From positions 1 to 38,469 of the forward strand of contig JAJZFV010000034.1 in the NCBI GenBank assembly GCA_021805205.1: a stretch of DNA of 38,469 bases, written 5' to 3'. This DNA comes from Actinomycetes bacterium (GTDB taxonomy: Bacteria; Actinomycetota; Acidimicrobiia; Acidimicrobiales; Acidimicrobiaceae). Below the pieces are notes generated by a model. It worked only from the letters and a program-made list of their open reading frames with translations. It did no database searches and was not told the DNA's origin. The number at the start of each line of letters is the position of its first letter. Positions within the stretch are counted from its first letter, which is position 1. Positions 14,994 to 32,363 of the stretch are shown here, in pieces. Made by a program: the position numbers and the translations under genes.

Positions 14994-16160
14994 TTAAATC
15001 GCCTCGCCTGTGGCAATATCAAAAAATAATGTCTTTTCGCTATTTAGGGTTAGATCGATCTCTTGTCCGGTTTGAAAGTGGTAGTTAGGTGGTATCCTTG
15101 CCACACCAACTCCACTTCCGCCACCCTTATTGGCTCCGAACTCGATATCTGTCATATCTTCATCCTCGGCAATTGCTCCAGCTACTTTGATCGCCTTAGC
15201 GTTGAAGCGAAAGTAGACCAGGAGTTCAGATCCCAGGGCCTCAACTAGATCTACCGCCACCTTGATGTTGCTATAGCTCTGGCTTGTTGCAACCGAGAGG
15301 TGTTCCGGTCGAAAGCCAACAGCCACTTTTTTTCCACGGTATCGATCCAAATTGGCATTCGTGTAGCTTGCAAGTTCTACCCGTTGGCCGCCGAGGTTGA
15401 TGTAGCTTCCATCTTCAGAGAGCCCCGCCTCAAAGATGTTCATCGAAGGTGACCCAATGAAACTCGCTACAAAAAGGTTGGCGGGTTTGGAGTAGATGGT
15501 CTGAGGATCGGCGCACTGCTGAAGATCGCCGGCGTGCATCACGGCAACTCGGTCTCCCATCGTCATCGCCTCTACTTGGTCGTGGGTTACATACAGGGTG
15601 GCAACACCCAATTGTCGCTGCACCCGGGAGACCTCGGCCCGCATTTTAACTCTAAGGTTGGCATCTAAGTTAGATAGAGGTTCATCCATGAGAAAGACTG
15701 AAGGGTCGCGAACTATTGCACGACCCATGGCTACTCTTTGACGTTGACCGCCGGAGAGCTGTCCAGGCTTCTTCTCCAGCTGCTCCATAAGTCCTAAAAC
15801 TTCAGCCGCATTTGCTACAGATCTTGCCACCTCCTCTTTACTCTTCTTCCGAAGGGTTAGGGCAAAGCCGATATTTTGTGCAACTGTCATATGGGGATAA
15901 AGTGCGTAATTCTGAAAGACCATAGCAATGTCTCTATCGCGTGCGGTAAGGTCGTTTACAATACGATCACCGATCATTAGAGTCCCGTCCGAGATCTCTT
16001 CCAATCCTGCAACCATTCGAAGTGTGGTGGTCTTTCCACACCCGGATGGGCCGACAAGTACCACAAATTCACCCTCTCTTATTGAGAGATCTAAGCCTTG
16101 GACGACCTTTTGGCCATTTGGATAGACCTTTGTAAGCTTTTCCATGGTTACAGTTGCCAT
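14994..16160 (-). CDS. Sugar ABC transporter ATP-binding protein (MalK/UgpC/MsmX type)
   Basis: A 388-aa ATPase with a complete nucleotide-binding domain: Walker A GPSGCGKT (37-44), Q83 (FQNYALYPHMTV), signature LSGGQ (135-139), Walker B FLMDE (156-160) and switch H193. The C-terminal 140 residues form the TOBE/regulatory domain typical of carbohydrate ABC importers. ATG 16160 (MATVTMEKLTKVYP) is chosen over longer versions because family members start here and AAAGGGGG lies just upstream. Binding protein and permeases are encoded 10-16 kb away with no ATPase beside them, so this is their likely energy subunit. A promoter-proximal 10-mer shared with the binding-protein gene supports that link. 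It may also serve other importers. Confidence 0.92.
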   Translation of the reverse strand: MATVTMEKLTKVYPNGQKVVQGLDLSIREGEFVVLVGPSGCGKTTTLRMVAGLEEISDGTLMIGDRIVNDLTARDRDIAMVFQNYALYPHMTVAQNIGFALTLRKKSKEEVARSVANAAEVLGLMEQLEKKPGQLSGGQRQRVAMGRAIVRDPSVFLMDEPLSNLDANLRVKMRAEVSRVQRQLGVATLYVTHDQVEAMTMGDRVAVMHAGDLQQCADPQTIYSKPANLFVASFIGSPSMNIFEAGLSEDGSYINLGGQRVELASYTNANLDRYRGKKVAVGFRPEHLSVATSQSYSNIKVAVDLVEALGSELLVYFRFNAKAIKVAGAIAEDEDMTDIEFGANKGGGSGVGVARIPPNYHFQTGQEIDLTLNSEKTLFFDIATGEAI

Positions 16161-16525
16161 TGGAGCCCCCTTTGAACGGCTTTCGACTTGACGAAGAACC
16201 AACTTTGGTGAAAAAATAGTCGATATCAGATAAGAGTTCTTACCACTGACCAGTTTCAAATGTTAGCATGGCCAAATAGCCTCTGCTACAAAAGGCGGTC
16301 AAGTTTTTTCACCGTCTGGAGGGGCCATGTTATCTTTAAAGTGGACAAAGGTAGACTTCGGCGTACTCAAGGTGCATCAAAGGCTAGAAAGAGGGTTCGT
16401 CTTGGAGGTAGTGCCGATCGATTCGAGTATTGGCGGTACAAGGTGGCGATCTGCCTTCAGCCACCGCTGTACCAACTCTAGAGAGGTGCGCCGTATGCAA
16501 TTTGAGGTAAGACCGAGAGGAGTCT
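16161..16525. other. 365-nt divergent region between ABC ATPase and FadR-type regulator
   Basis: No gene is called here. The left side contains the candidate ATPase promoter and the shared 10-mer (listed separately). An alternative reverse-strand promoter is TTGACC (16302-16297) with TATTTG 18 nt further. The regulator's own promoter could not be identified. Confidence 0.4.
16243..16265 (-). promoter_or_regulatory. ABC ATPase promoter region with TGGTCAGTGG element
   Basis: On the reverse strand an extended -10 (TG-C-TAACAT, hexamer 16265-16260) is followed after 7 nt by TGGTCAGTGG (16252-16243). The identical 10-mer occurs just after the -10 of the binding-protein promoter at 27794-27785. 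Both genes belong to the same presumed transporter, which makes a shared operator plausible. Confidence 0.45.
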
Positions 16526-17248
16526 ATGGATACTATCTGGCATCCAATTAAGGAGTCGGGTCACCTAACTGAGAAGATTGTCGCCCGAATTGAGCAGATA
16601 ATTGAAGAATCGCAGTTGACGGCTGGGTCCAGACTTCCTTCGGAGCGGGATCTGGCCCGACTTTTGGGAGTTTCGCGCCCCGCACTTCGCGAAGCGGTCA
16701 AGACCCTTGAAGCCCATGGTAGGGTTGCAGTTCGCCATGGTCAAGGCGTCTTTATAGTAGCAAGTGCAGACGACGTGATGAGAGATCGCCTCGCCAAGCA
16801 AGAGATCTCCATGACAGAGCTCTATGCCATGCGAAATGTGCTTGAGGCTCCGGCGGCGGGGTGGGCTGCAGCTAACGCTAGCGAGGAAGATATCGAACGC
16901 CTTCGTCTAGCCCTAGAAGCGGAAGAGGAGGCCCGAACTAACCCTACCGACTTTTCGCGCCTTGCCCAACTAGATTCTGGATTTCACCTCTTGATCGTAG
17001 AGATAGCCAGAAACCGTTTTCTACTGCAGACCGTAGGTATACTCCAGGAGATGATGGCCGCAGGAATGGACACTACATTGACGGTCCCTGGCCGCCTAGA
17101 GCGTTCACGACAGGATCATCGTGCAATATTTGAGGCGATTCGAGACCACGACGTCGAGGCGGCGCGAGTAGCTGCATCATCTCACATCATTGGCGCTCGT
17201 GAAGCGGCACTACTTCGAGTACGAGAAGCTGGCGAGATCCACCAGTAA
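16526..17248 (+). CDS. FadR-subfamily GntR transcriptional regulator (HTH + FCD)
   Basis: A 240-aa regulator with a winged HTH of the GntR type (residues 15-78; LTAGSRLPSERDLARLLGVSRPALREAVKTLEAHG). An all-helical FCD effector domain follows (about 98-235), including the D150/H154 pair (LDSGFHLLI) and the late DHRAIFEAI and SHI histidines that bind metal or carboxylate ligands in this family. GAGAGGAG precedes ATG 16526. It lies 109 nt before the sulfo-lyase operon, whose promoter carries a GGT-N3-ACC element of the form FadR-type proteins recognise, repeated at the ABC/GH31 promoter. It is the natural candidate repressor of the whole regulon; an organic-acid intermediate such as a sulfonated acid would be the inducer. 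Confidence 0.9.
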   Translation: MDTIWHPIKESGHLTEKIVARIEQIIEESQLTAGSRLPSERDLARLLGVSRPALREAVKTLEAHGRVAVRHGQGVFIVASADDVMRDRLAKQEISMTELYAMRNVLEAPAAGWAAANASEEDIERLRLALEAEEEARTNPTDFSRLAQLDSGFHLLIVEIARNRFLLQTVGILQEMMAAGMDTTLTVPGRLERSRQDHRAIFEAIRDHDVEAARVAASSHIIGAREAALLRVREAGEIHQ

Positions 17249-17276
17249 ATTGCTTCAAAGTCGAATCGATTTTTAA

Positions 17277-17325
17277 TTGACATCACCACCTTCAAGCGCT
17301 AGTGTTATTGGACAGAGGTCATACC
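17277..17325 (+). promoter_or_regulatory. Promoter and 16-bp operator of the sulfo-lyase operon
   Basis: TTGACA (17277-17282), 17 nt, TAGTGT (17300-17305), 4 nt, then GGACAGAGGTCATACC (17310-17325). The element covers the expected transcription start. Its 3' part, GGTCATACC, is a GGT-N3-ACC core as bound by FadR-subfamily GntR regulators. The same 16 bases with the same spacing to -35 and -10 occur at 32363-32315 on the other strand. Confidence 0.75.
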
Positions 17326-17357
17326 TTATAAACCAGATATTAACACTGAGGTGACGC

Positions 17358-17654
17358 ATGAGCGATGAATTGGCCTTTTTGGCCCATCAGCAAGGAGACT
17401 CCGTAGCTGTTGCGGTTAGGGATGTTGAGGCCGGCAAAGCACGGCTTGCATATCTTGACTCCGAGGATCAGATCGAGATTGTAACTAGGGAAGCAATTCC
17501 ACTTGGCCACAAGGTGGCTCTAGTTTCAATCCCAGCCGAGGCATCGATAGTTGAATACGGTGAGATCATTGGATCTTCCAGAGGTCAAATCGAAGCAGGG
17601 GAGTTAGTTCACATCCACAACATTAGGAGCAATAGATGGCAAATCAAGGCCTAA
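17358..17654 (+). CDS. suyA: Sulfolactate sulfo-lyase small subunit-like SAF-domain protein
   Basis: A 98-aa SAF-domain protein, the separate small subunit of UxaA-type lyases. Visible features are FLAHQQGDSVAVAVRDVEAG at the start, PLGHKVALVSI in the middle (the His is conserved in the family), and the terminal VHIHNIRSNRW. In altronate and galactarate dehydratases this domain is fused to the large subunit; in (2R)-sulfolactate sulfo-lyase it is a separate subunit of about this length. GAGGTGA (17348-17354) precedes ATG 17358. The stop overlaps the next gene by 19 nt, so the two subunits are translationally coupled. First gene of a five-gene operon. Assignment to SuyA is by recalled similarity and context; an altronate-type dehydratase is the alternative. 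Confidence 0.72.
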   Translation: MSDELAFLAHQQGDSVAVAVRDVEAGKARLAYLDSEDQIEIVTREAIPLGHKVALVSIPAEASIVEYGEIIGSSRGQIEAGELVHIHNIRSNRWQIKA

Positions 17655-18793
17655 CCGGTTATCGTCGCGCAAACGGAGCCGTTGGAATCCGTAACTATGT
17701 GGTCATATTGGCAGTCGACGACCTATCCAATGCAGCAGTAGAAGGTATCGCAGCACTTGTTCCAGGTACGATTGCTATCCCTCACGCCTACGGTCGCCTT
17801 CAATTCGGTGAAGACCTCGAATTGACCTTTAGAACTTTGATCGGTACTGGAGCAAACCCAAACGTAGCGGCGGTGGTAGTAGTTGGAATTGAACCCTCCT
17901 GGACCGATCGGGTGGCAGATGGAATCGCCCTTACCCAAAAGCCAGTTGAACGTCTCTCGATCGAGCGTAACGGCGACCTAAATACCATCGCGCAAGGAGC
18001 TCGGATCGCCGCTCGACTACTTCAAGATGCGAGCGAGATTCAAAGAACTCCGGTTGAACGAAGCGAAGTGATGATGTCGATCAAGTGCGGGGAATCCGAT
18101 ACCACAAGTGGCCTCGGTGCATGCCCCACCACATCGCAAGCCGTTGATCGAACCGTTCTAGCTGGGGGAACCGTGCTCTTTGGTGAGACCACCGAATTGA
18201 CCGGTGGTGAACACCTGATCGCTAATAGATGCGTAAACGACGCCGTTAAAGATAAATTCATGGCATTCTTCAATGACTACTTGGCGACGGTAGAGGCGCA
18301 GGGCGTGGACCTTTTAGGCTCACAGCCGACCCAGGGAAATATCAGAGGTGGCCTCTCGACCATTGAAGAGAAGGCTATGGGAAATATCGCTAAGACAGGT
18401 TCTGTCCCGGTGGTTGATGCACTCGAGCCAGCCGTTGCCCCAAGCGTTCCGGGATTGAACTTCATGGATACCTCTTCAGCCGCCGCCGAGTGCATAACTT
18501 TAATGGCTGCAGCAGGAGCCGTCATCCACCTCTTTCCTACCGGACAAGGAAACATAATCGGAAATCCAATTGAACCAGTAATTAAAATCACGGCCAACCC
18601 CCTAACGGCCAGCACCATGGGAGAGCATATCGATCTCGATGTATCTGGACTTCTTCGTCGCGACTATGGGCTAAAGGAGGCTGGAGATCAGTTGATGGAG
18701 CTAATCGATCGCACCATCAATGGACGTTTGACAGCTGCAGAGGCGATTGGCCACAAAGAGTTCGTTATCACCAAGCTCTATCGGAGCGCATAG
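17636..18793 (+). CDS. suyB: Sulfolactate sulfo-lyase large subunit-like (UxaA family)
   Basis: A 385-aa UxaA-family lyase large subunit, the length known for SuyB, which cleaves (2R)-3-sulfolactate to pyruvate and sulfite. Conserved blocks are VDDLSNAA (28-35), PHAYGRLQFGEDLELTFRTLIGTGANPNVAAVVV (49-82), KCGESDTTSG with C151 (150-159), SQPTQGNIRGGLSTIEEKAMGNI, and FPTGQGNIIGNPI near residue 300. The KCGESD cysteine is the probable metal ligand. From memory these blocks match SuyB more closely than altronate dehydratase, but I cannot align them here. AGGAG (17625-17629) inside suyA serves ATG 17636. The aldehyde dehydrogenase starts 2 nt after the stop. Confidence 0.72.
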   Translation: MANQGLTGYRRANGAVGIRNYVVILAVDDLSNAAVEGIAALVPGTIAIPHAYGRLQFGEDLELTFRTLIGTGANPNVAAVVVVGIEPSWTDRVADGIALTQKPVERLSIERNGDLNTIAQGARIAARLLQDASEIQRTPVERSEVMMSIKCGESDTTSGLGACPTTSQAVDRTVLAGGTVLFGETTELTGGEHLIANRCVNDAVKDKFMAFFNDYLATVEAQGVDLLGSQPTQGNIRGGLSTIEEKAMGNIAKTGSVPVVDALEPAVAPSVPGLNFMDTSSAAAECITLMAAAGAVIHLFPTGQGNIIGNPIEPVIKITANPLTASTMGEHIDLDVSGLLRRDYGLKEAGDQLMELIDRTINGRLTAAEAIGHKEFVITKLYRSA

Positions 18794-18795
18794 AT

Positions 18796-20268
18796 ATGGC
18801 AATTGCTACCCAAGCGCTCATCGATGCGGGAGCGGTTGTACCAATGTTGATCGGAGGCGAATGGAGCCCATCATTTACCTCCGGTCTTCGCGATGTAACC
18901 AATCCAGTCAACGATAGGGTCATCGCCCAGATCGCCTACGGTGGAGCAGATGAAGCAGATGCCGCCGCCGATAGCGCGGCTGATGCTTTCAGAAGCTGGT
19001 CTAATACTTCTACACGTTACAGAAGCGATATCTTGAGGCGTACATATGAGCTACTGTTGGAGCGCGCCGAGGCGATTGGCTATATCCTTAGCCTTGAATC
19101 CGGAAAGCTCTTGCCCGAGGCCATCGGTGAGATTCGCTTCAGCGCAGAGTACTTTAGATGGTTCTCTGAGGAGATTCGCCGTCCACAAGGCGAAGTTTTT
19201 GCAAGTGAGGATCAAAGCCGGCGACAGATTTCGATTTCGAGACCGATTGGAGTCGCAGCCACTTTGACTCCCTGGAACTTTCCGGTATCAATTCAAGCTC
19301 GCAAAGTGGCACCGGCTTTGGCGGCAGGTTGCACCGTCGTGGCTCGACCATCCGAGAAGGCGCCATTGGCGGTGGCGGAGGTGTTTCGGGCACTGGTTGA
19401 CGCCGGTATACCAAAGGGCGTCGTCAATCTTATCTACGGACCAGCTTCACCCCAGTCAAATGCTCTCATCGATCATGAGTCGGTAGAGGTTATCAGCTTT
19501 ACCGGATCGACGGCGGTAGGTTCCGCCCTGATGAAACGGGCTTCGGCTCGTATCGTAAAGTGTGCCCTTGAATTGGGGGGTGACGCTCCATTTATCATCT
19601 TTAGCGACGCTGATATAGATAGAGCTATCCAAGGTCTCCAGATAGCCAAATTTAGGAACAATGGACAGTCGTGCATCGCTGCTAACCGAGTCTTTGTTGC
19701 CTCTTCAATTATGGATCAAGTCTGCGACAGACTCGGAAAGCTAACTGAGGCGATGAGCGTTGGCGACCCTCTCGGGGGCGAACCGGTCGATCTTGGACCC
19801 CTTATAGATCAGAGTCGTCTTCGTGAGGTAGATAAGATCGTTCGTGAGGCAACCTCTGCCGGGGCTTACTTTCTAGGAGGAGAGCCAAAGATGTGTGATG
19901 GTCCCAACTACTATCGACCCGGCTTCTTGGTAAATGTAGCCGAGGAGTGCCAACTTGCTAGAGAAGAGGTCTTTGGCCCGGTCGCCGGTGTCTTCTCGTT
20001 TGACGACGAAGAAGAGGTGATTGAGCGCTCCAATAGGACATCTATGGGGCTAGCTGGATACGCCTACACCTCGGATCAAGGGCGGATCTGGAGACTGTCA
20101 GAGAGGATCGAAGTCGGGATTCTTGGGATCAACCATCCGCTGCCATCGGTGGTCTATTCCCCTATGGGGGGATTGAAGAGAAGTGGCCTCGGACGAGAAG
20201 GGGCTCACGATGGATTGGCTGAATATCAAGAGACAAAGTACGTCTCGATAGGTGTAGAGGGGCTGTGA
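18796..20268 (+). CDS. NAD(P)-dependent aldehyde dehydrogenase (succinate-semialdehyde dehydrogenase-like; candidate sulfolactaldehyde dehydrogenase)
   Basis: A 490-aa ALDH with all catalytic residues: N161 (TPWNFP), E259 (LELGGDAP) and C293 (NNGQSCIAANR). The latter sequence is typical of the GabD-like branch, to which known sulfolactaldehyde dehydrogenases also belong. The coenzyme-binding FTGSTAVG is at 235-242. In this operon it fits oxidation of (S)-sulfolactaldehyde, released by the aldolase, to (S)-sulfolactate. Alternatives are 2-ketoglutarate semialdehyde, glycolaldehyde or succinate semialdehyde. It begins 2 nt after suyB and overlaps the next gene by 4 nt (GTGA), so coupling is tight. 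Confidence 0.88.
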   Translation: MAIATQALIDAGAVVPMLIGGEWSPSFTSGLRDVTNPVNDRVIAQIAYGGADEADAAADSAADAFRSWSNTSTRYRSDILRRTYELLLERAEAIGYILSLESGKLLPEAIGEIRFSAEYFRWFSEEIRRPQGEVFASEDQSRRQISISRPIGVAATLTPWNFPVSIQARKVAPALAAGCTVVARPSEKAPLAVAEVFRALVDAGIPKGVVNLIYGPASPQSNALIDHESVEVISFTGSTAVGSALMKRASARIVKCALELGGDAPFIIFSDADIDRAIQGLQIAKFRNNGQSCIAANRVFVASSIMDQVCDRLGKLTEAMSVGDPLGGEPVDLGPLIDQSRLREVDKIVREATSAGAYFLGGEPKMCDGPNYYRPGFLVNVAEECQLAREEVFGPVAGVFSFDDEEEVIERSNRTSMGLAGYAYTSDQGRIWRLSERIEVGILGINHPLPSVVYSPMGGLKRSGLGREGAHDGLAEYQETKYVSIGVEGL

Positions 20269-23958: not shown

Positions 23959-23965
23959 CGATTGC

Positions 23966-25000: not shown

Positions 25001-25143
25001 ATTGCCCCCAATAGGTGATGACCTTATATCGGTAAATCCTAGCAGTGGTAAGACCATTAAGGGCATTTCTACGACTAGCATTGGATCTAGAAGTGACCAA
25101 TGGGTAGCTATCTGAGCCACCAAAGCGAAGCAGCAAAGGAGCG
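25001..25143. promoter_or_regulatory. Divergent promoter region with FadR-type operator TGGTAAGACCA
   Basis: TGGTAAGACCA (25046-25056) is a perfect TGGT-N3-ACCA palindrome, the FadR-subfamily operator form. A reverse-strand promoter for the Ldh2-family gene overlaps it: TTACCA (25053-25048, on the reverse strand), 17 nt, TATAAG. GGTGATGACC (25014-25023) nearby, followed by TTATA, resembles the operator flank at 17321-17330. Control by the FadR-type protein of this window is inferred. Confidence 0.5.
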
Positions 25144-26154
25144 GTGACCTTGAATAATTCCACCTCCGAAGAGATCTCCCCAACAAAGTTTTCCAACTGC
25201 GTGTTAGTTGTAGAAGACGTATGGGGTAAGGCCTTTGACCTTGCTAAGGAGCAATTAACCTTCTCATACCAACCTGAGCTCTGGAAAGATGGTGAGAAGC
25301 TAAGGCAAGCCATCGCCCGAGCCGATGCCTTAGTGGTTAGAAATCGTACCCAAGTAAATCGAGAACTCCTAGCTAGCGCGCCGATGCTTAAGGTGGTTGC
25401 TAGGGCAGGTGTAGGTCTCGACAATATCGACCTTACAGCCGCCGATGAGTTGGGCGTGGTCGTAGTTGCAGCACTTGGTGCAAATGCCACAAGTGTCGGT
25501 GAACACGCCCTAGCAATGGCCTTCGCCTTTGCAAAGGACCTTGTAAATCAAGACAATGACACCAAAGCTGGGCGATGGGATCGTCGATTGGGCTTCGAGC
25601 TCAACGCTAAGAGCTGGGGAGTAATCGGCCTTGGAGCAACTGGCCGTGAAACTGCCAGACTTAGCCACGCCATTGGTATGAAGGTCTTCGGATACGACCC
25701 TCTGCTCCCAGCCGATAGAAAGGTAGAAGGAGTTGATCGTCGTTGCGAGACTATAGATGAGCTATTGGCAACCTGCGACATCGTATCACTGCATGTACCT
25801 CTCACGCCGTCGACAAAGAACCTAGTAGACGCCGAATTCCTAGCCAAAATGAGAGAGGGTTCCTACCTTATAAATTCATCTCGTGGCGCCTTGGTCGATG
25901 AGGATGCTCTAGTAATGGCTCTAGATTCAGGTCACATATGCGGAGCGGCACTTGACGTAAGGGAGGCTGAACCACCTAAAGCACACCCTCTAAATAACCA
26001 TAAAAAGGTTATAGCCTCTCCTCACGTGGCAGGATTGACTCATGAGTCACAAGATCGAATAACTACCATCCTCGCCTCTGAGGTGGAGTCGATTCTAAGG
26101 GGCCAGGTGGCTACCTACCACGTTGGATCGCATTGTGTTCCAGTAGGAAAGTAG
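25144..26154 (+). CDS. slcC: D-isomer-specific 2-hydroxyacid dehydrogenase (candidate (S)-sulfolactate dehydrogenase)
   Basis: A 336-aa Rossmann dehydrogenase of the D-3-phosphoglycerate dehydrogenase type. The NAD loop is GLGATG (162-167), and the catalytic residues are R247 (NSSRGALVDE), E276 (DVREAEPP) and H294 (SPHVAGLT). There is no ACT domain, so it is not a full-length SerA. SlcC of sulfolactate degraders belongs to this family and oxidises (S)-sulfolactate to sulfopyruvate. Next to a ComC-like gene and with SuyAB in the same regulon, that is the favoured role; phosphoglycerate, hydroxypyruvate or glyoxylate reductase are alternatives. GTG 25144 is only 2 nt from AAGGAG (25136-25141), so TTG 25150 with 8-nt spacing may be the real start. 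Confidence 0.85.
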   Translation: MTLNNSTSEEISPTKFSNCVLVVEDVWGKAFDLAKEQLTFSYQPELWKDGEKLRQAIARADALVVRNRTQVNRELLASAPMLKVVARAGVGLDNIDLTAADELGVVVVAALGANATSVGEHALAMAFAFAKDLVNQDNDTKAGRWDRRLGFELNAKSWGVIGLGATGRETARLSHAIGMKVFGYDPLLPADRKVEGVDRRCETIDELLATCDIVSLHVPLTPSTKNLVDAEFLAKMREGSYLINSSRGALVDEDALVMALDSGHICGAALDVREAEPPKAHPLNNHKKVIASPHVAGLTHESQDRITTILASEVESILRGQVATYHVGSHCVPVGK

Positions 26155-26288: not shown

Positions 26289-26315
26289 GGGGAACTTCCA
26301 TGAGGAAGATATGTT

Positions 26316-27692
26316 TTAGGCAACCACTGCGCTGCCTACTGCTGCTTGCATAGCTTGAAGGCCGGCTGAAACCGAAGACTGGTTGGCAATTACCGAATTC
26401 AATGGGGCCTGCAGCGTCGCGGAGACCGCTGGGTAGTTTTGAATCGATGGTCTAGCCTTGGCACTCGCGAGTATGGTGGGAAGATTCTTGAGGTTAGGTG
26501 ACTTCACCAGTAGCTCGGTATTTGCCTGAACGTCTTGACGGGCAGATAGTAGTCCAGCTCCAGCAGTTAGCTGAATCTGTTGCGCTTGGGAAGTCAGGTA
26601 CTGAATAACTCTCCAGGCAGCCTCGGGGCGTGTTGACTTGGAGTTGATTCCATACATCCAACCGCCGGTACAGCCATGACCACTTCCGTTGCTTTGTCCT
26701 GGCAGTGGGGCATTGTTCACCTTTCCTGGAACTTTAGATTGCGTTGGACTATTTGCAAGGGTGTAGGCATAGGTCCAGTTACGCATAAAGAGGGCATTGC
26801 CGTTTTGCATTAGCACCAAGGCGTCGTTTGGCTTCATCGTGGAGGTTCCGGGAGGAGAGATCTTGTTGGTGTAGATGCAGTCGTAGAGGAACTGTAGTGA
26901 TTTGGTACCTGCTGGAGTATCCAAGGTCACCTTTGAACCAGAGGAGATCTCGCCGCCATAACCCCATGTGTACTCACAGAACTCGTCGAAGATCGCCTCG
27001 ATCTGGGCGCCTTCCCAAACGTAGCCCCAGAACTCAGGATTACTAGCCCGTTCGCCCGCCTGTACCTTCTGCGCGATACGAACTAATTCGGCGTAGGTGG
27101 TTGGAACGGTCTCGTTGTACTTTGCAAGCAGGTCAGTGCGGTAGTAGAGCTGCCCAACGTCGATCGACTGTGGAATTGCATAGAGCTTACCCTTATATTT
27201 TCCGATGTCGAGAGCGGTTGGAATAAAGGCCGACTGGAACGATGTAGAAGCATATTGATCAAGGGGGAGAACCCACCCAGCTGCAGCGAACGTACCAGGA
27301 TAAGTTACGTCCATGGTTAATACATCTGGGGTAGAGGCCCCACCGGCTAGTGCCGTGACGTATTGGTTGTATACATCGTTAGTCGTTGGTGGAATGGTCT
27401 GAAAGGTAACTGGAGTATCGGGATTTGCATTATTCCACTGATTTATAAGGATCGTTGTAGTTCCGGAGTTATCTTGAGGTCCCGCAAGAACGATTGGCCC
27501 TGTCTGACGAGCCGGCGCACCAGTTGTCGTTGGTCCCGAAGAAGCCGCCGCAGTTGTAGTCGCCGAGGAGCTTCCACTTCCACAAGCAGCCAAGACAACT
27601 CCGCCAACTGCTGCAACTCCAAGACCAAGGAACTTTCGTCTGCCTATCTCTCTAGTCGAGTTATCCTCGGCCTTTTCTAGTTCTGAACCCAT
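26316..27692 (-). CDS. ABC transporter sugar-binding lipoprotein (extracellular, family 1)
   Basis: A 458-aa solute-binding protein. The N-terminus has a twin-arginine motif (R18-R19, RRKFLG), a hydrophobic stretch and a lipobox ending at C37 (LAAC), followed by a Ser/Thr/Ala-rich linker, so it should be exported by Tat and anchored as a lipoprotein. The mature part reads PIVLAGPQDNSGTTTILINQWNNANPDTPVTFQTIPPTTND, then ALAGGASTPDVLTMDVTYPGTFAAAGWVLPLDQY, the standard pattern of family 1 carbohydrate-binding proteins. The late EAAWRVIQYLTSQAQQ is also typical. It has its own promoter and lies downstream of the permease-GH31 genes on the same strand. The ligand is inferred to be the glycoside acted on by the GH31 enzyme. 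Confidence 0.92.
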   Translation of the reverse strand: MGSELEKAEDNSTREIGRRKFLGLGVAAVGGVVLAACGSGSSSATTTAAASSGPTTTGAPARQTGPIVLAGPQDNSGTTTILINQWNNANPDTPVTFQTIPPTTNDVYNQYVTALAGGASTPDVLTMDVTYPGTFAAAGWVLPLDQYASTSFQSAFIPTALDIGKYKGKLYAIPQSIDVGQLYYRTDLLAKYNETVPTTYAELVRIAQKVQAGERASNPEFWGYVWEGAQIEAIFDEFCEYTWGYGGEISSGSKVTLDTPAGTKSLQFLYDCIYTNKISPPGTSTMKPNDALVLMQNGNALFMRNWTYAYTLANSPTQSKVPGKVNNAPLPGQSNGSGHGCTGGWMYGINSKSTRPEAAWRVIQYLTSQAQQIQLTAGAGLLSARQDVQANTELLVKSPNLKNLPTILASAKARPSIQNYPAVSATLQAPLNSVIANQSSVSAGLQAMQAAVGSAVVA

Positions 27693-27774
27693 CTATGGCT
27701 CCCTTTCCCCCGTGCAGGCGCACTTTCCCACTAAATACGAGATGACTCAAACTCAAGAAGTTTTTTGAACATCA

Positions 27775-27825: not shown

Positions 27826-27865
27826 GTAAAGTTGCGGCGCGACAGTGAATCTTTACTATTTTTTG

Positions 27866-30295
27866 CTAGTCGAAATCGATCTGTCGATCTGGATTTAGGA
27901 CGATCTCTAGCTCTTCAACTTTTCCGTCGCTCCTATGCAATCGCGCCGAGGAGAGCCTTGGCCTCGCTTCGCTAATGTATAGTTTTGGCCTGTTATCTCC
28001 ACTCCCAGAGGGATCGAAGATGTAGGTAAAGGCCTCGCCATCCTGATAGATCACACTTTTATGGGGCGGTCCATCCCAAACTTCGATCTCCCAAGTTTCG
28101 CTCGATATTTCGTCGGTGTAACGTCCTGATGGACCGAATGCAATTGCACTTCCGCTTCGTATAAAGATCGGGATCCTATCAAGCGGAACGTCCATCTTGA
28201 AGCTCTTGGGACCAACGTGCGATTGACCACTCCAGTAGTCTGACCACTGGCCCTTAGGTAGGACCACCTCCACATTTGCTAGGTCACTTTCGCCGCTGAG
28301 GACGGCCACAACCAAGATGTTTGGACCTAAAAGAAATTCGTGGTTGACCCGGTAGTTGGAGAGTTCCTGACTATCTTCAAAGATCAGAGGGCGTAACATT
28401 GGCCATCCGAACTTGGCCCCTTCCCACGCAGCGCTAATGATGTTGGGGAGTAGTCGGTATCTAAGCTCTGCAAACTTCCTAACGATCGTCTCGGCTTCTT
28501 CTCCAAAGTGCCAAGGTTCCCTCGGTGTCAAGCCGTGAAAGCGAGTCAAGGGAGAGAGGCAGCCCACTTGGGCCCAGCGAATGTATAACTCTCTCGAAGG
28601 ACCAACTCCGAAAAAACCGCCCACGTCATGGGCCCACATACCTGGAGCCGAGAGGCCCCAATTCAATCCTCCTCGAAGGCTATTTGAAAGACCGGCGAAG
28701 CTTGATTCAGGGTCTCCTCCCCATTGCGCTGGATAACGCTGTGATGATGCCCAACCGGCACGACTCCAAACCAGGGGAGCTTCGCCTTTATACTCTTCCA
28801 TCGCCTCGGAGACGGTTCTGGAATACCAAAGAGGGTAAAGATTGCGCCAATTCCTACCCCTCGATCCATCGTGCATCTTTGCGTCATCGGGAAGTCCTTC
28901 GCCAAAGTCGCACTTCAATACAGAGACCCCAAGATCAAGAAGCTCTTTGTTCTTCTTCTTCCACCAAATGCGAGCCTCTGGATTGGAAAAGTCGACCAAA
29001 CGCCGAGGGCGTCCGTCTTTCGAGAAAGTTCTAACTACCTTTGCCGCATCGCCATTGCCGTCGGAGACGAGATAGCCACCCTCTTTTGCCTCTTCGATCA
29101 AGGGAGATGCATCGTCGATGTAGGGAAGTTCCCAAAGTGAGATCCTAAATCCCCTCTCTTTGAGAGAGGCCATCATCTCGATCGGCTCTGGGTACTTCTC
29201 ATGCGACCAGATGAAGTCGCAGTTGAGGCGATCGAGGACCAGCCAATCGGGGTCGATGTGGAGAACGTCGCACGGGATATTGTGCTCTCTCATTCCATCT
29301 GCCGCCTCTTCGAGGGATCGACGATTGGGATATCTACACCTTGACATCCAAAGGCCAAAGGCCCATCGCGGTGGTACCTTCATGCGCCCCGTCAACTCGG
29401 TATATAGCGTAAGCCTCTCACGAACGTCAACACCAGCTATCAGGAACAGGTCAAGCCTCGCCTCTTCATTCAAGACCTCGAGAACGTTAGGATAGGGGTC
29501 ACCCACTCTTACCTTCATCGGTCCAGGTCCATGAATAAATGCCGTATAGCCCCTAGAGGAGTGGAGGACCGGTGCTGGCTTGTAGACAAGGCCAGTTCCT
29601 ACCCCTGAAGCATCGTTGGCTACTAATTCAAAGGAGGATCCATTGTGGATTAGGGGGCTAAATTGCTCACCGAGTCCGACGATGTATTCGTCGTGAGCGA
29701 TCTCAAGTGAGAACGAAGAGCTCTCCTTGGCAAAAGCTATGTGTGGAGAGTATGGAAAGCCGGCAACTTGACGCCGGTCCCCGCCGCCTCTTGTTATCAG
29801 GGCTCCACTTAGGTCGATTAGTTCGAAGGAGAAGGGCTCTTTATTGAACTTAAGGGTCAACGATTCGCTTCGTATCTCGAGAGACTTTCCCAGATCCTCT
29901 AGGCTTAGCGCCGAGCACTGCGGCAGCTCCGTCTTCAATATTCCAAAGTTGATACCGTCTATGTCCTCGATCTCCAAATCGTCCGGGATAAGGGTAATCC
30001 GAAAGGTGTTTTTTCCATAGCCATGAACTATGAGCGAAGCCTTTGCTCTGACTGTAGGATCGTGCTCCTCGTTAGCCTCCTCAATCGTTGGAGCATTTGG
30101 AAGAAGCGACTCCAGACCCTGCTTTGAGGTCGGTTCGGAGGTGATAATTCCCGGTACCATTCCTATTGGTACGAAACTCACCCCTCCAACCCTCAGAGTA
30201 ATTCCATGAGCATCTTGGCTGTAGCTTTCGATAGAGCGAACTAGGAATCTATTGCCCGCTAGGTTGTCGATTTTTTCCACATCTGTTGTCGTCAT
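27866..30295 (-). CDS. Glycoside hydrolase family 31 alpha-glycosidase (YicI-like)
   Basis: An 809-aa GH31 retaining alpha-glycosidase. The nucleophile is D463 (LKCDFGEGLP, compare KTDFGERIP of YicI) and the acid/base is D528 (YPAQWGGDPES). The N-terminal beta-sandwich (about 1-290), catalytic barrel (about 300-640) and C-terminal beta domains are all present. There is no signal peptide, so it acts in the cytosol after import. The barrel segment IPCDVLHIDPDWLVLDRLNCDFIWSHEKYP follows alpha-xylosidase/glucosidase forms. The K-R-x-x-W sulfonate-binding motif I recall from YihQ sulfoquinovosidase is not seen. ATG 30295 overlaps the permease stop (TAATG), showing coupling; a longer frame would run into that gene. 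Confidence 0.9.
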   Translation of the reverse strand: MTTTDVEKIDNLAGNRFLVRSIESYSQDAHGITLRVGGVSFVPIGMVPGIITSEPTSKQGLESLLPNAPTIEEANEEHDPTVRAKASLIVHGYGKNTFRITLIPDDLEIEDIDGINFGILKTELPQCSALSLEDLGKSLEIRSESLTLKFNKEPFSFELIDLSGALITRGGGDRRQVAGFPYSPHIAFAKESSSFSLEIAHDEYIVGLGEQFSPLIHNGSSFELVANDASGVGTGLVYKPAPVLHSSRGYTAFIHGPGPMKVRVGDPYPNVLEVLNEEARLDLFLIAGVDVRERLTLYTELTGRMKVPPRWAFGLWMSRCRYPNRRSLEEAADGMREHNIPCDVLHIDPDWLVLDRLNCDFIWSHEKYPEPIEMMASLKERGFRISLWELPYIDDASPLIEEAKEGGYLVSDGNGDAAKVVRTFSKDGRPRRLVDFSNPEARIWWKKKNKELLDLGVSVLKCDFGEGLPDDAKMHDGSRGRNWRNLYPLWYSRTVSEAMEEYKGEAPLVWSRAGWASSQRYPAQWGGDPESSFAGLSNSLRGGLNWGLSAPGMWAHDVGGFFGVGPSRELYIRWAQVGCLSPLTRFHGLTPREPWHFGEEAETIVRKFAELRYRLLPNIISAAWEGAKFGWPMLRPLIFEDSQELSNYRVNHEFLLGPNILVVAVLSGESDLANVEVVLPKGQWSDYWSGQSHVGPKSFKMDVPLDRIPIFIRSGSAIAFGPSGRYTDEISSETWEIEVWDGPPHKSVIYQDGEAFTYIFDPSGSGDNRPKLYISEARPRLSSARLHRSDGKVEELEIVLNPDRQIDFD

Positions 30296-31215
30296 TATTT
30301 GACAGCCCCCAAGGTCATTCCACTTATAAGTCGCTTTTGAAATACAGATACCGCTAGGGCTACCGGCACCAGAGCAAGTACCGTCGCCGCCGATATGATT
30401 CCCCAAGGAAATGTGTATTGACCTGGATATAGGGCGATACCCACTGGAAGTGTTCTCATCGAATTATCGGTCATGAATGTGAGAGCCAAGAGGAATTCAT
30501 TCCAATCGGTTGCAAAGATGATGAGGCCGGCGGTCACAATCCCAGGTATCGATACCCGGAGGATGATTCGAATAAATGCACCAAAGTAGTTGAGGCCATC
30601 GACCATAGCCGCCTCTTCGAGCTCTTTCGGCAGGTCTTGGAGGTATGCATTCATCAACCAGACACATATTGGCAGGCTCAAAAAGGTATACGGAATGATC
30701 AAGGCCCAATAGGTATTGAGGAGTGAAAAGTGGCGGAAGAGATTGAATAGTGGAACCACCAATGTGATAGGTGGAAGGAATGAAAAGCCGAGAATCACTA
30801 GCAGTACCGTCTTTTTAAATCTAAAGCGGAGTCTTGCAATGGCATATCCCGCCAAAGTTCCAAGAAATAGGGTGGCGAGGGTGGACGAGACGCTAACTAC
30901 CAGGGAGTTTATATAGTATCTTCCAAAGGGCGCCTGCCCAAGTGCAGTCCTATAGCTACCCAAGGTGATTGAGGAGGGTATCAGGGTAACTGGTTGGGTT
31001 GTTAGCTGTGATTGAGGCTTTAGTGAAGTGATCACTATCCATAGCACTGGAAAGAGCGCATAAAACCCAAGGACGATGGCACTCGCGTTGAAAAGACCCA
31101 TACGAGCCTTGGCCCATCCGCTCCTTCGTTGACGCCTCATCGGCCCGCTTCGAGGGCGAGCAGTCGAGGTTTTACGCTTTTGGACCTTCTGATTTGGAAC
31201 TTCTGTAATTGACAT
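30295..31215 (-). CDS. Sugar ABC transporter permease (MalG type)
   Basis: A 306-aa inner-membrane permease with six predicted segments. The EAA loop for ATPase docking is LEEAAMVDGLNYFGAFIRIILRVSIPG (about residues 205-231). The N-terminal tail is strongly basic (KVQKRKTSTARPRSGPMRRQRRSG). The sequence ends SGMTLGAVK, the usual MalG-type finish. It starts 22 nt after the partner permease and its stop overlaps the GH31 start. The ribosome site is weak, which suggests coupling to the upstream gene. Confidence 0.92.
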   Translation of the reverse strand: MSITEVPNQKVQKRKTSTARPRSGPMRRQRRSGWAKARMGLFNASAIVLGFYALFPVLWIVITSLKPQSQLTTQPVTLIPSSITLGSYRTALGQAPFGRYYINSLVVSVSSTLATLFLGTLAGYAIARLRFRFKKTVLLVILGFSFLPPITLVVPLFNLFRHFSLLNTYWALIIPYTFLSLPICVWLMNAYLQDLPKELEEAAMVDGLNYFGAFIRIILRVSIPGIVTAGLIIFATDWNEFLLALTFMTDNSMRTLPVGIALYPGQYTFPWGIISAATVLALVPVALAVSVFQKRLISGMTLGAVK

Positions 31216-31237
31216 CTGTGGTTGCTCGACTCGCTCT

Positions 31238-32194
31238 TTAGCCCAAGGACTCGGGACGGTATAGGACTTTTACGTAGAAGATTGCAAAGGCGGAGATCAT
31301 GATTGCTAGGACAACGCCCATAGCTGAACCATAACCAAAGTTCAAACCTTGTATCGCCTGTTGGTAGAGGTAGAGGGGAAGGTTTAGGGTTGAATATCCT
31401 GGTCCACCAAGGGTGAGTCCATAGATGATATCAAAGGCCTGAAGCGCCTCAACGGTTCGAAGAACTAACACTACAAGGATGGTTGGGCGAAGCATCGGCA
31501 TTGTTATGCGACTAAACCTTTGCCAAGCTGTAGCACCATCGACGTCGGCGGCCTCATAGACCGAGGCTGGAATTGACTGTAGGCCTGCCAAGAAGACTAA
31601 GGCTGCAAATGAATTAACCTTCCAGATAGCTACCAAAAAGAGTGCTATTACTGCAAGTGTTGGTGATCCAAGCCACACGAACGAGTGGGGTAGTCCTAGT
31701 CTTTGTAGTACTCCATTGAAGAGGCCATAGTTTGGGTCGTACATAAAGCGCCAGACAACGGCGGTTATGACGGTTGGCATCATCCATGGAAAGAGTAGGG
31801 CTGCACGAAATAGACCCCTTCCACGAAACTCCCTATTAGCCATGAGGGCGACGCCTAGACCAACGATTGTCTGACCCAAAACGCTTAAGACCGCATAAAA
31901 GATGGTGAACTTTAGTGCCAACCAAAAGACGTGATCGTGAAAGAGTTGGGTGTAGTTGGAGAGGGTGAAGTTATGCTGAAGTGGATCAGTCAACACATAA
32001 TGCTGAAAAGACCAGAGAATCGTCTGAGCCGATGGATACAGAAGAATGGCCGTAAGTCCCACGAAAGTAGGCAAAATAAGCCAAAAGGCGAACCTCCTCT
32101 CTCGCGAACCCAACCCCCTCGTCCTCTTCTTGGTGCGACTCAAAATCGCAGAACCAGCCACAACTCCTGGCTCACTGCGCGTAATTTCCTTCAA
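31238..32194 (-). CDS. Sugar ABC transporter permease (MalF/UgpA type)
   Basis: A 318-aa inner-membrane permease with six predicted segments. The EAA loop reads YEAADVDGATAWQRFSRITMPML, standard for carbohydrate importers. I place the start at TTG 32194 (MKEITRSEPG) because GGAGGGG lies 5 nt upstream; an ATG at 32224 has no ribosome site. First gene of the permease-permease-GH31 operon, whose promoter at 32363-32335 carries the 16-bp element found at the sulfo-lyase promoter. The leader would be about 130 nt. Confidence 0.91.
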   Translation of the reverse strand: MKEITRSEPGVVAGSAILSRTKKRTRGLGSRERRFAFWLILPTFVGLTAILLYPSAQTILWSFQHYVLTDPLQHNFTLSNYTQLFHDHVFWLALKFTIFYAVLSVLGQTIVGLGVALMANREFRGRGLFRAALLFPWMMPTVITAVVWRFMYDPNYGLFNGVLQRLGLPHSFVWLGSPTLAVIALFLVAIWKVNSFAALVFLAGLQSIPASVYEAADVDGATAWQRFSRITMPMLRPTILVVLVLRTVEALQAFDIIYGLTLGGPGYSTLNLPLYLYQQAIQGLNFGYGSAMGVVLAIMISAFAIFYVKVLYRPESLG

Positions 32195-32314
32195 CGATTC
32201 CCCTCCTACCTCAAACCACAGCATTAAAGCCGTAGCTAGGCAACCGCTACCTCAATCGTCTGGAACGATCATGATATGAGGCCATAACAGATAAATCAAA
32301 AAGAATGAATCGTT

Positions 32315-32363
32315 GGTATGACCTCTGTCCTTTTACCCTAATCGAAATTATGATTTATGTCAA
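32315..32363 (-). promoter_or_regulatory. Promoter and 16-bp operator of the ABC-permease/GH31 operon
   Basis: Reverse strand: TTGACA (32363-32358), 17 nt, TAGGGT (32340-32335), 4 nt, GGACAGAGGTCATACC (32330-32315). Element sequence, -35, spacer length and the distance from -10 to the element are identical to the sulfo-lyase operon promoter at 17277-17325; only the spacer and the 4-nt gap sequences differ. Confidence 0.75.

What the first reader, a model, noticed from the sequence alone, without database searches (positions are those of the whole stretch)
14994..32363. A complete-looking sulfoquinovose-to-sulfite pathway in one regulon (sulfo-ED plus SuyAB)
Seen: SDR, IlvD/Edd dehydratase, DapA-type aldolase, GabD-like ALDH, D-isomer 2-hydroxyacid dehydrogenase, Ldh2-family dehydrogenase, a split UxaA-type lyase matching SuyAB in size and recalled motifs, a sugar ABC importer and a GH31 glycosidase. 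Known: the sulfo-ED pathway (Pseudomonas putida SQ1) uses an SDR, lactonase, IlvD/Edd dehydratase, aldolase and sulfolactaldehyde dehydrogenase and excretes sulfolactate. Sulfolactate degraders invert (S)- to (R)-sulfolactate with SlcC and ComC, then cleave it with SuyAB. Inference: here both halves are joined, so one organism could take a sulfosugar to two pyruvates and sulfite. If the host is an acidophilic actinobacterium, algal sulfolipid in acidic water would be a natural source. The missing lactonase and the GH31 type are the weak points.
Basis: partly seen in the sequence, partly recalled or inferred. Interest (0 to 1): 0.92.

Follow-up and report, generated by a model that had tools for sequence, protein, structure and literature searches.

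The report
Sulfosugar-to-sulfite pathway in acidophile-family actinobacteria
An actinobacterium from a family of acid-loving bacteria carries, apparently under one switch, genes that look able to import a rare sulfur-bearing sugar (more likely sulfofucose than the commoner sulfoquinovose) and break it down to pyruvate and sulfite, with a new mix of enzymes for the middle steps.

Summary
The genes are there and behave as one unit. SuyB falls in the SuyB clade (100/100), lacks three of four UxaA/GarD cysteines as other SuyB do, and is 58% identical to SuyB beside hpsN/hpsO in Cupriavidus. suyA-suyB-ALDH-ilvD-SDR overlap or lie 2 nt apart. The same 7 of 42 family genomes hold close SuyB, IlvD, GH31 and DapA orthologues; the other 35 hold none at those levels. 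A palindromic site is conserved at suyA (7/7), malF (6/6 seen) and comC|slcC (7/7). The 'missing' lactonase sits in the cluster in four relatives.

The sugar is probably not sulfoquinovose. The SDR is in a 99/97 clade with SDRs of sulfofucose-type clusters, a sulfo-ED SQ dehydrogenase outside it. The aldolase's nearest plasmid relative is in an Arthrobacter sulfofucose-type cluster. The IlvD groups with L-arabinonate dehydratases, its distal-pocket residues changed. The GH31 lacks most of the sulfoquinovosidase signature.

I read it as a new variant of the tandem sulfofucose-sulfolactate sulfolyase pathway (mBio 2025), with another dehydratase and aldolase and a candidate sulfofucosidase. No substrate was tested.

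The parts
13432..14652 (+). MFS transporter, possible exporter; neighbour, membership not proven
   Evidence: PF07690; 74% orthologue beside the cluster in G214; 36% homologue beside SMP-30 and DapA in G424
14994..16259 (-). ABC transporter ATPase (MalK/UgpC type) of the sugar importer
   Evidence: PF00005 + OB_MalK; 67-87% in 6 of 6 relatives
16526..17248 (+). GntR/FadR (FCD) regulator of the cluster
   Evidence: PF00392+PF07729; 48% to the GntR next to suyAB in R. koreensis
17310..17325 (+). proposed operator GGACAGAGGTCATACC (core AGGT-CAT-ACCT) in the suyA promoter
   Evidence: exact at suyA in 7 of 7 genomes; both window matches of the 16-mer at up to 3 mismatches are exact, 0.35 expected
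17358..17654 (+). SuyA, small subunit of (R)-sulfolactate sulfo-lyase
   Evidence: SAF domain; 41% to SuyA of C. pinatubonensis, 47% R. koreensis; overlaps suyB by 19 nt
17636..18793 (+). SuyB, large subunit of (R)-sulfolactate sulfo-lyase
   Evidence: 56-76% in the 13 best plasmid rows; clade 100/100; Cys pattern
18796..20268 (+). aldehyde dehydrogenase, proposed sulfolactaldehyde dehydrogenase (SLADH)
   Evidence: best plasmid hit = ALDH of the R. koreensis suyAB operon 52.7%, second Arthrobacter YA7-1 50.6%, third 44.1%; catalytic and proposed sulfonate-binding positions kept
20265..21983 (+). IlvD/EDD dehydratase, proposed sulfogalactonate (or sulfogluconate) dehydratase
   Evidence: groups with an annotated L-arabinonate dehydratase 100/99, apart from SG dehydratases; distal-pocket changes
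21980..22771 (+). SDR, proposed sulfofucose dehydrogenase (SfcH-like)
   Evidence: clade 99/97 with SDRs of sulfofucose-type clusters; best plasmid hit S. mexicanum 49.8%, next rows about 40%
23041..23958 (+). DHDPS-family aldolase, proposed KDSGal/KDSG aldolase
   Evidence: PF00701; best plasmid hit Arthrobacter YA7-1 44.7%, the other 19 rows shown 34.8% or less
23966..25003 (-). ComC-like (R)-sulfolactate dehydrogenase (Ldh2 family)
   Evidence: NCBIfam top hit L-sulfolactate dehydrogenase, 220 bits against a cut-off of 500; best plasmid hits R. koreensis/R. jostii 49%, then 37-38%
25046..25056 (.). operator-like palindrome TGGTAAGACCA between comC and slcC
   Evidence: present in 7 of 7 comC|slcC spacers
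25144..26154 (+). SlcC-like (S)-sulfolactate dehydrogenase (2-hydroxyacid dehydrogenase)
   Evidence: PF02826/PF00389; best plasmid hits R. koreensis 46.5% and R. jostii 45.3%, then 38-45%, so the gap is small
26316..27692 (-). sugar-binding lipoprotein of the importer (MalE-like)
   Evidence: PF01547; nearest solved: trehalose/maltose-binding proteins, third SmoF
27866..30292 (-). GH31 glycosidase, candidate (sulfo)glycosidase
   Evidence: orthologues in the same 7 of 42 genomes
30295..31215 (-). importer permease MalG
   Evidence: 79-94% in relatives
31238..32224 (-). importer permease MalF
   Evidence: PF00528; 86-92% in relatives
32315..32330 (-). proposed operator GGACAGAGGTCATACC in the promoter of the malF-malG-GH31-SBP operon
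   Evidence: exact in window, G214, G402; one mismatch in G413, G415, G416; G401 contig ends

Best explanation
A single-regulon pathway that takes a C6 sulfosugar to pyruvate and sulfite in an actinobacterium of the Acidimicrobiaceae. Proposed steps: the ABC importer brings in an alpha-glycoside or the free sugar; the GH31 frees the sugar inside the cell; the SDR oxidises sulfofucose (6-deoxy-6-sulfo-D-galactose) to its lactone; a lactonase (in the cluster in relatives; elsewhere or spontaneous here) opens it; the IlvD dehydratase makes 2-keto-3-deoxy-sulfogalactonate; the DapA-type aldolase splits it into pyruvate and (S)-sulfolactaldehyde; the ALDH makes (S)-sulfolactate; SlcC and ComC invert it to (R)-sulfolactate through sulfopyruvate; SuyAB releases sulfite and a second pyruvate; sulfite leaves by an exporter. 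The GntR/FadR-type regulator acting at the shared palindrome would switch the suy operon, the importer-GH31 operon and comC/slcC together. Shown here by sequence: gene families, SuyB membership, shared inheritance, shared promoter site. Inferred: every reaction, binding of the site by the GntR protein, and sulfofucose rather than sulfoquinovose. The confidence is for the whole statement with sulfofucose; for 'a sulfosugar to sulfite in one regulon' I would put 0.87.
For: SuyB: 57.9% to SuyB next to hpsN/hpsO of C. pinatubonensis HN-2 and 75.9% to Rhodococcus; from the 14th row of the 40 shown identity is 39.8% or less; clade 100/100; three of four Cys columns shared by E. coli UxaA and GarD are empty in 21 of 21 full-length SuyB rows, window included, and filled in 8 of 8 other rows, in line with PMC6336799 (passages). 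Operon: overlaps at 17636, 20265 and 21980, a 2-nt gap before the ALDH. Co-inheritance: the same 7 of 42 family genomes hold SuyB >=86%, IlvD >=73%, GH31 >=61%, DapA >=54%; 8 other SuyB loci of the class show no IlvD, DapA or GH31 hit in the stretches read. Regulon; the exact 16-mer is in 14 of 209 loci (several overlap), all from these seven genomes. Sulfofucose: SDR clade 99/97 with S. mexicanum (listed among sulfofucolytic clusters in PMC12421959), G303 and YA7-1, Shinella SQ dehydrogenase outside; S. mexicanum, G303 and YA7-1 carry enolase-type dehydratases 59% alike; aldolase tie to YA7-1; IlvD next to the group whose best-studied member prefers D-fuconate and 4S acids (PMC11316719, passages). 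Sulfonate fit: the helix Trp is His in 6 of 6 cluster enzymes and Arg in both SG dehydratases; the C-terminal His is replaced in 7 of 7 (RR[SP]T) and is Tyr in both SG dehydratases.
Against: No enzyme was assayed and no substrate bound. The SDR has Ala where S. mexicanum and G303 have the catalytic Ser (Thr in YA7-1), in 6 of 6 Acidimicrobiaceae looked at; it also lacks Arg at PpSQDH Arg152/Arg154 as I align them by eye (so does the S. mexicanum SDR). The Shinella SQ dehydrogenase sits on a long branch (2.14), so its exclusion is less sure than the support suggests. The binding protein is not an orthologue of S. mexicanum's (no blastp hit at 1e-6). No lactonase in the window; the genome's two other SMP-30 proteins above the cut-off are not orthologues. 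The stereochemistry argument from the IlvD is weak: 734 bits to the L-arabinonate dehydratase but 717 to PuDHT, reported to work best on D-gluconate, and canonical SG dehydratases are also annotated araD. The published sulfofucose dehydratase and aldolase are of other families. The S. mexicanum, G303 and YA7-1 clusters are assigned by homology, not assay; the P. wurundjeri proteins themselves were not available. The SLADH grouping is 80/93, below the tool's star. No PF00174 sulfite oxidase was found. Several of the seven genomes are 76-89% complete and two pairs are close, so the 7-of-42 pattern is not seven independent events.
Confidence: 0.6

Rival explanations
1. Same pathway, but the sugar is sulfoquinovose: a sulfo-ED variant with a new aldolase and a new GH31, joined to SlcC/ComC/SuyAB.
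For: The dehydratase is of the PF00920 family used by sulfo-ED, and a canonical SG dehydratase is also annotated araD. SQ is far commoner than sulfofucose. At two distal-pocket positions ours and the SG dehydratases both depart from the L-arabinonate dehydratase. SQ also occurs in acidophile glycans (S. acidocaldarius, PMC12890257 passage). In the alignment an Arg stands at YihQ Arg301 in 7 of 7 cluster GH31s. MalF and MalG are nearer to the Shinella (40%, 44%) than to the YA7-1 (35%, 34%) permeases.
Against: SDR 32% to a canonical SQ dehydrogenase and in another clade; IlvD nearer L-arabinonate (58%) than SG dehydratase (50%); PF00701 aldolase; YihQ Gln262, Gln288, Trp304, Tyr508 not kept in the GH31.
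Confidence: 0.26
2. A non-phosphorylative pentose or D-fucose pathway (Weimberg/Dahms type: SDR, SMP-30, IlvD L-arabinonate dehydratase, DapA-type L-KDA dehydratase, ketoglutarate-semialdehyde dehydrogenase; scheme recalled) that has come to lie next to a sulfolactate operon.
For: This set of families fits that route; IlvD is 57.6% to an annotated L-arabinonate dehydratase; the GH31's best NCBIfam score is alpha-xylosidase, below its cut-off.
Against: suyAB, ALDH, ilvD and sdr overlap or nearly touch; the ALDH is nearest to ALDHs of a suyAB operon and a TauE-bearing cluster, 32% over 258 aa to the ALDH beside the L-arabinonate dehydratase of Paracoccus TOH; the DapA's nearest plasmid relative sits with a galactonate-type dehydratase, SSADH-like ALDH and TauE; shared inheritance with suyB in 42 genomes; shared promoter site; distal-pocket changes in the IlvD.
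Confidence: 0.07
3. The suy half serves only C3 sulfonates (sulfolactate or DHPS) taken up from outside; the sugar half is a separate pathway sharing the regulator.
For: R. koreensis carries suyAB-ALDH-slcC-comC without a sugar half, and so do other SuyB loci of the class as far as read, so the module can work alone.
Against: The sugar genes lie inside the suy operon and are inherited with it. I recognised no sulfonate importer or DHPS dehydrogenase among the window's ORFs, but I did not search for them and the MFS genes at 13432 and 33579 were not tested for substrate.
Confidence: 0.05

Closest known systems
Tandem sulfofucolytic-sulfolactate sulfolyase pathway of Paracoccus wurundjeri (PMC12421959; abstract, results parts 1-2 of 3, discussion part 1 of 2, passages)
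   Same: ED-type start with an SDR, lactonase (in relatives here), dehydratase, aldolase; SlcC/ComC/SuyAB end; ABC importer; one organism from sulfosugar to sulfite
   Different: Dehydratase IlvD/EDD (PF00920) instead of enolase-type SfcF; aldolase PF00701 instead of PF03328; an SLADH-like ALDH in the operon (no classical homologue in P. wurundjeri); GH31 in the regulon; Actinomycetota
Canonical sulfo-ED (P. putida SQ1 type; compared through the Shinella sp. WSC3-e cluster L208)
   Same: SDR, IlvD/EDD dehydratase, SSADH-like ALDH, GH31, MalFG-type importer
   Different: SDR and GH31 not close; aldolase family differs; here the pathway goes on to SuyAB instead of stopping at sulfolactate
Extended sulfo-TAL clusters with SuyAB in Thermotogae and Chloroflexi (PMC9594981, passage)
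   Same: Sulfosugar breakdown and SuyAB in one gene cluster
   Different: Transaldolase route for sulfoquinovose, not an ED route
Sulfolactate/DHPS-type operon of Rhodococcus koreensis (L002)
   Same: GntR, SuyA, SuyB 76%, ALDH 53%, SlcC 46%, ComC 49%
   Different: No sugar half, glycosidase or sugar importer in the stretch read
Arthrobacter sp. YA7-1 plasmid cluster (L152)
   Same: SDR 42%, DapA-type aldolase 45%, ALDH 51%, SMP-30, MalFG-SBP importer
   Different: Enolase-type dehydratase, TauE; no SuyAB or GH31 annotated in the stretch read

Membership tests
SuyAB (R)-sulfolactate sulfo-lyase | split small (SAF) and large subunit genes | tested here: met
SuyAB (R)-sulfolactate sulfo-lyase | large subunit in the SuyB clade, apart from UxaA/GarD | tested here: met
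   100/100; the tool warns of long branches for UxaA, GarD and one other row
SuyAB (R)-sulfolactate sulfo-lyase | absence of the conserved UxaA/GarD cysteines | tested here: met
   three of four columns empty, as in 21 of 21 full SuyB rows; the fourth Cys is kept in all
SuyAB (R)-sulfolactate sulfo-lyase | sulfite release from (R)-sulfolactate | not testable with these tools
   needs an assay
SlcC/ComC sulfolactate-inverting pair | 2-hydroxyacid and Ldh2-type dehydrogenases linked to suyAB, nearest to such pairs | tested here: met
   best plasmid hits of both are in the Rhodococcus suyAB operon, narrowly for SlcC; found in 7 of 7 genomes, on one contig with suyB in 5, contigs break in G413 and G416
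canonical sulfo-ED | SQ dehydrogenase orthologue | tested here: not met
   32% and outside the clade
canonical sulfo-ED | PF00920 dehydratase of the SG dehydratase clade | tested here: not met
   family yes, clade no
canonical sulfo-ED | PF03328 KDSG aldolase | tested here: not met
   PF00701 in the cluster; the rest of the genome not searched
sulfofucolytic ED tandem pathway | SfcH-type SDR | tested here: met
   clade 99/97 with the S. mexicanum SDR; P. wurundjeri SfcH itself not available
sulfofucolytic ED tandem pathway | enolase-type SfcF dehydratase | tested here: not met
   IlvD in its place in the cluster; the rest of the genome not searched
sulfofucolytic ED tandem pathway | PF03328 SfcE aldolase | tested here: not met
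   PF00701 in the cluster; the rest of the genome not searched
sulfofucolytic ED tandem pathway | PF08450 lactonase | tested here: inconclusive
   absent in the window, present in the cluster of 4 of the 7 genomes, contig ends in two
sulfofucolytic ED tandem pathway | SlcC, ComC, SuyAB in the cluster | tested here: met
GH31 sulfoquinovosidase | catalytic Asp pair | tested here: met
   both align
GH31 sulfoquinovosidase | SQ-binding residues of YihQ (Gln262, Gln288, Arg301, Trp304, Tyr508; roles recalled) | tested here: not met
   only the Arg column agrees, in a gapped stretch
sugar acid dehydratase subfamily (IlvD/EDD) | C-terminal His (called fully conserved in PMC11316719) | tested here: not met
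   RR[SP]T in 7 of 7

The most novel reading that the evidence does not exclude
Acidimicrobiaceae scavenge sulfofucose from the N-glycans of neighbouring Thermoplasmatales archaea (of the two reported natural sources, the one from an acid habitat): the GH31 is the first sulfofucosidase, and the IlvD and DapA enzymes are an independent invention of the sulfogalactonate steps, giving a complete one-cell route from an archaeal surface sugar to sulfite.
Probability: 0.22. Interest if true: 0.85.

Novelty: new variant of a known kind. Interest (0 to 1): 0.68.

Why it matters
Having sulfosugar breakdown and C-S cleavage in a single bacterium is called unusual (PMC12421959, discussion), and that paper lists sulfofucose clusters from Proteobacteria; its main text has no word beginning 'actino' or 'Arthrobacter'. 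Here is a compact, co-inherited, apparently co-regulated set in Actinomycetota with a different dehydratase and aldolase, so a search seeded with enolase-type SfcF, as in that paper, would miss it. It offers a candidate sulfofucosidase, for which that paper found none, and a natural test of how a sugar-acid dehydratase is retooled for a sulfonate.

Tried and rejected
Considered and rejected: SuyB as altronate/galactarate dehydratase; the Weimberg pentose route (see rivals); the GH31 as a classical sulfoquinovosidase; the genome's SMP-30 proteins on C53 and C11 as the missing lactonase: 23-30% over short stretches. The L-arabinonate similarity of the IlvD was first taken as an argument for galacto-stereochemistry; a canonical SG dehydratase turned out to be annotated araD too, so I keep it only as a weak point, resting on the tree.

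A phylum search with the SDR at E<=1e-58 found only the window's own genome among 396; the list does not show whether G214 or G303 were drawn, and the cut-off may be too strict for 49% identity. The handle search told no kinship. The binding protein against PDB did not point to a sugar. PMC10755693 gave no text on the SQase motif. Operator-like sites were not found upstream of dapA (short stretches only in three genomes) or, with this consensus, of the binding-protein gene; at gntR only in two genomes. GGTNNGACC as such is over-represented in the window (12 against 4.3 expected), so the short core alone proves little; the argument rests on conserved position.

Rows left out: the SuyB tree used 22 SuyB rows; SuyB-type hits of G243, G315, G379, a second G296 copy, R. 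jostii and the other plasmid rows were not included. The IlvD tree has 12 rows and no solved-structure sequence.

Literature: searches. Of 40 papers the 12 shown include none that joins Acidimicrobiaceae or Acidithrix with sulfoquinovose or sulfolactate; that is my only basis for saying this cluster is not in print. In one search five papers hold the sulfofucose terms.

Full report
What is there. On the plus strand suyA (17358-17654), suyB (17636-18793), an ALDH (18796-20268), an ilvD-type dehydratase (20265-21983) and an SDR (21980-22771) overlap or lie 2 nt apart. A DapA-type aldolase follows after 269 nt here, and after 27 nt in G415 and G416 (ORF starts). comC (minus) and slcC (plus) diverge; malF-malG-GH31-SBP run on the minus strand; an ABC ATPase and a GntR/FadR regulator sit upstream of suyA.

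SuyAB is genuine. In 72,556 plasmid records the large subunit hits 314. In the 40 rows shown the first 13 are 56-76% identical, among them C. pinatubonensis HN-2, whose locus carries annotated hpsN and hpsO; from row 14 on identity is 39.8% or less. In a 30-row tree the 22 SuyB-type rows form one clade (100/100; the tool warns of long branches). PMC6336799 (passages) states that four cysteines are conserved in the UxaA/GarD superfamily except in the sulfo-lyase. I took the four columns in which E. coli UxaA and GarD share Cys: all are Cys in 8 of 8 other rows; three are missing in 21 of 21 full SuyB rows including the window, and the fourth is kept in all.

The downstream half. The ALDH, SlcC and ComC of the window have their best plasmid hit in one operon of Rhodococcus koreensis: GntR, suyA, suyB, ALDH, MFS, NAD(P)-dependent oxidoreductase, slcC, comC; for SlcC the lead is small. 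The ALDH keeps the catalytic positions and the two Arg positions proposed to bind the sulfonate in RlGabD (PMC10599462, passages; read off the alignment); those Arg are shared with SSADH and do not discriminate. In a 14-row tree it groups with the R. koreensis, G303 and Arthrobacter YA7-1 enzymes (80/93, not starred), apart from E. coli GabD and the sulfo-ED ALDHs of Shinella and Burkholderia.

One unit. Searches of 42 family genomes found SuyB (>=86%), IlvD (>=73%), GH31 (>=61%) and DapA (>=54%) in the same seven (4 of 12 in g1, 3 of 5 in g5) and in none of the other 35 at those levels; the next best were IlvD 47-50% in four genomes, GH31 44% in G422 and DapA 43-44% in G424. Gene order is kept as far as contigs go. 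Many of the 42 are incomplete and the seven are related, so this is not seven independent events. Eight other SuyB loci of the class showed no IlvD, DapA or GH31 hit, nor did the G233 stretch.

One regulon. The 16-mer GGACAGAGGTCATACC, with the inverted repeat AGGT-CAT-ACCT, lies upstream of suyA in 7 of 7 genomes and upstream of malF in 6 of 6 (exact in three, one mismatch in three; the G401 contig ends before it). A TTGACA-like -35 precedes it at suyA in all seven and at malF in the three genomes where that stretch was printed. The comC|slcC spacer holds TGGTAAGACCA in 7 of 7. In the window the 16-mer with up to 3 mismatches is found twice, both exact, against 0.35 expected; 5 of 100 shuffles reach two at that looser setting. 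The exact form is in 14 of 209 loci, all of these genomes. The short core GGTNNGACC is itself over-represented in the window (12 against 4.3). By eye the binding-protein promoter has another conserved palindrome-like element; dapA has none. Binding by the GntR protein is inferred from the FadR-like form of the site (consensus recalled).

The missing lactonase. In G214 a PF08450 protein lies between the MFS gene and the ABC ATPase (L028:8457-9320); G415, G416 and G413 have one at the same end of the cluster. The window lacks it there; G401 and G402 contigs end. The genome's two other PF08450 proteins above the cut-off are not orthologues. G415 also has an aldose 1-epimerase beside malF.

Which sugar. 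I compared with a canonical-looking sulfo-ED cluster found through YihQ (Shinella L208): importer, IlvD annotated araD, aldolase/citrate-lyase-family aldolase, SMP-30, SDR, YihQ-like glucosidase, TSUP transporter, SSADH. The window's SDR is 32%, IlvD 50%, ALDH 37% and GH31 27% identical to these; MalF and MalG are somewhat nearer to Shinella (40%, 44%) than to YA7-1 (35%, 34%). By contrast the SDR's best hit among the 5000 best-scoring plasmid records is the S. mexicanum SDR (49.8%, next rows about 40%), in a strain that PMC12421959 lists with sulfofucolytic clusters; the locus also holds an enolase-type dehydratase, importer, SMP-30-like protein, suyAB, slcC and comC. With G303 (same order: SfcF-type dehydratase, importer, and comC-slcC-ALDH-suyBA) and Arthrobacter YA7-1 these SDRs form a clade of nine (99/97) against 17 generic SDRs and the Shinella enzyme, which is on a long branch. 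The DapA-type aldolase is nearest to that of YA7-1 (44.7%; the other 19 rows shown 34.8% or less), which lies between an enolase-type dehydratase 58.5% to S. mexicanum's and an SMP-30, with an SSADH-like ALDH and TauE. So two sugar steps point to sulfofucose-type clusters, themselves assigned by homology.

The dehydratase. It groups with the Paracoccus TOH enzyme annotated L-arabinonate dehydratase and an Arthrobacter ERGS1:01 enzyme (100/99), apart from two SG dehydratases. The best-studied L-arabinonate dehydratase, RlArDHT, has D-fuconate as its best substrate and prefers 4S acids; its active site is completed by a helix Arg22-Trp30 and a C-terminal His of the partner subunit, the His being called fully conserved in sugar acid dehydratases (PMC11316719, passages). 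D-fuconate is sulfogalactonate without the sulfonate. In the cluster enzymes the position of Trp30 (placed by the alignment) is His in 6 of 6 looked at, and the tail ends RR[SP]T in 7 of 7; in the two SG dehydratases the same places are Arg and Tyr. I read this as a second, independent retooling of the distal pocket for a sulfonate. It does not fix the C4 configuration: the score against PuDHT, reported best on gluconate, is close.

The GH31. Its nearest solved relatives are 5f7c and YicI-type enzymes, not YihQ. Nucleophile and acid/base Asp align. Of YihQ's SQ-binding residues (roles recalled; letters checked) only Arg301 has a counterpart, an Arg in 7 of 7 cluster enzymes and Val in the 44% homologue of G422, in a gapped stretch. 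YicI Cys307-Phe308 is Pro-Asp here, so I do not expect an alpha-xylosidase (determinant recalled). It is a candidate for a new sulfo-glycosidase; PMC12421959 identified no candidate sulfofucosidase.

Open points. The SDR has Ala at the catalytic Ser in 6 of 6 Acidimicrobiaceae looked at. No PF00174 sulfite oxidase was found in this 89% complete genome; several TauE-family proteins were, so I expect export of sulfite rather than oxidation.

Host and ecology. G014, in the same family, has one contig of 2,158,157 b, the published length of Acidimicrobium ferrooxidans (PMC3035218 abstract). Genus g1 includes a 4.0-Mb genome (G214; one stretch 49% GC); Acidithrix C25 is 4.10 Mb and 47.7% GC (PMC8223813, whole text), so Acidithrix is possible, not shown. 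Sulfofucose is reported from Fucaceae glycolipids and N-glycans of Thermoplasma acidophilum (PMC12421959), and the same glycan was modelled into cryo-EM maps of two other Thermoplasmatales filaments (PMC12448462, passages). Archaeal glycans in acid water are therefore a plausible source; the habitat of this host was not shown.

Verdict. It is a new variant of the tandem sulfofucose-sulfolactate sulfolyase pathway.

Noticed in passing
L152:2803-14028 (Arthrobacter sp. YA7-1 pYA7-1a): Cluster of importer, SDR, enolase-type dehydratase, DapA-type aldolase, SMP-30, PfkB, aldolase, SSADH-like ALDH and TauE that looks like a sulfofucose-type ED pathway with a DapA aldolase, on a plasmid typed as conjugative.
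   Followed up: partly
L030:67-12305 (G303): Actinobacterial SfcF-type cluster (dehydratase 59%, importer about 50-62% to S. mexicanum) next to comC-slcC-ALDH-suyB-suyA.
   Followed up: partly
L002:13812-22181 (Rhodococcus koreensis plasmid): Compact GntR-suyAB-ALDH-MFS-oxidoreductase-slcC-comC operon, apparently for sulfolactate or DHPS.
   Followed up: no
L190:3473-7619 and L191 (G424): SMP-30, DapA homologue (43-44%), mutarotase-like protein and, in L190, an MFS1 homologue together, no suyAB hit in these short contigs; sugar unknown.
   Followed up: no
window 22409-22411 (SDR residue 144) and orthologues: Ala in place of the catalytic Ser of the SDR in 6 of 6 Acidimicrobiaceae looked at, Tyr and Lys kept.
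   Followed up: partly
window 11055-13249: Acetamidase/formamidase-family protein and a second SDR upstream of the MFS gene; relation to the cluster unknown.
   Followed up: no
L192 (G422): SMP-30 and a 44% GH31 homologue adjacent on a short contig, with Val where the cluster GH31s have the Arg of 'DRLNC'.
   Followed up: partly
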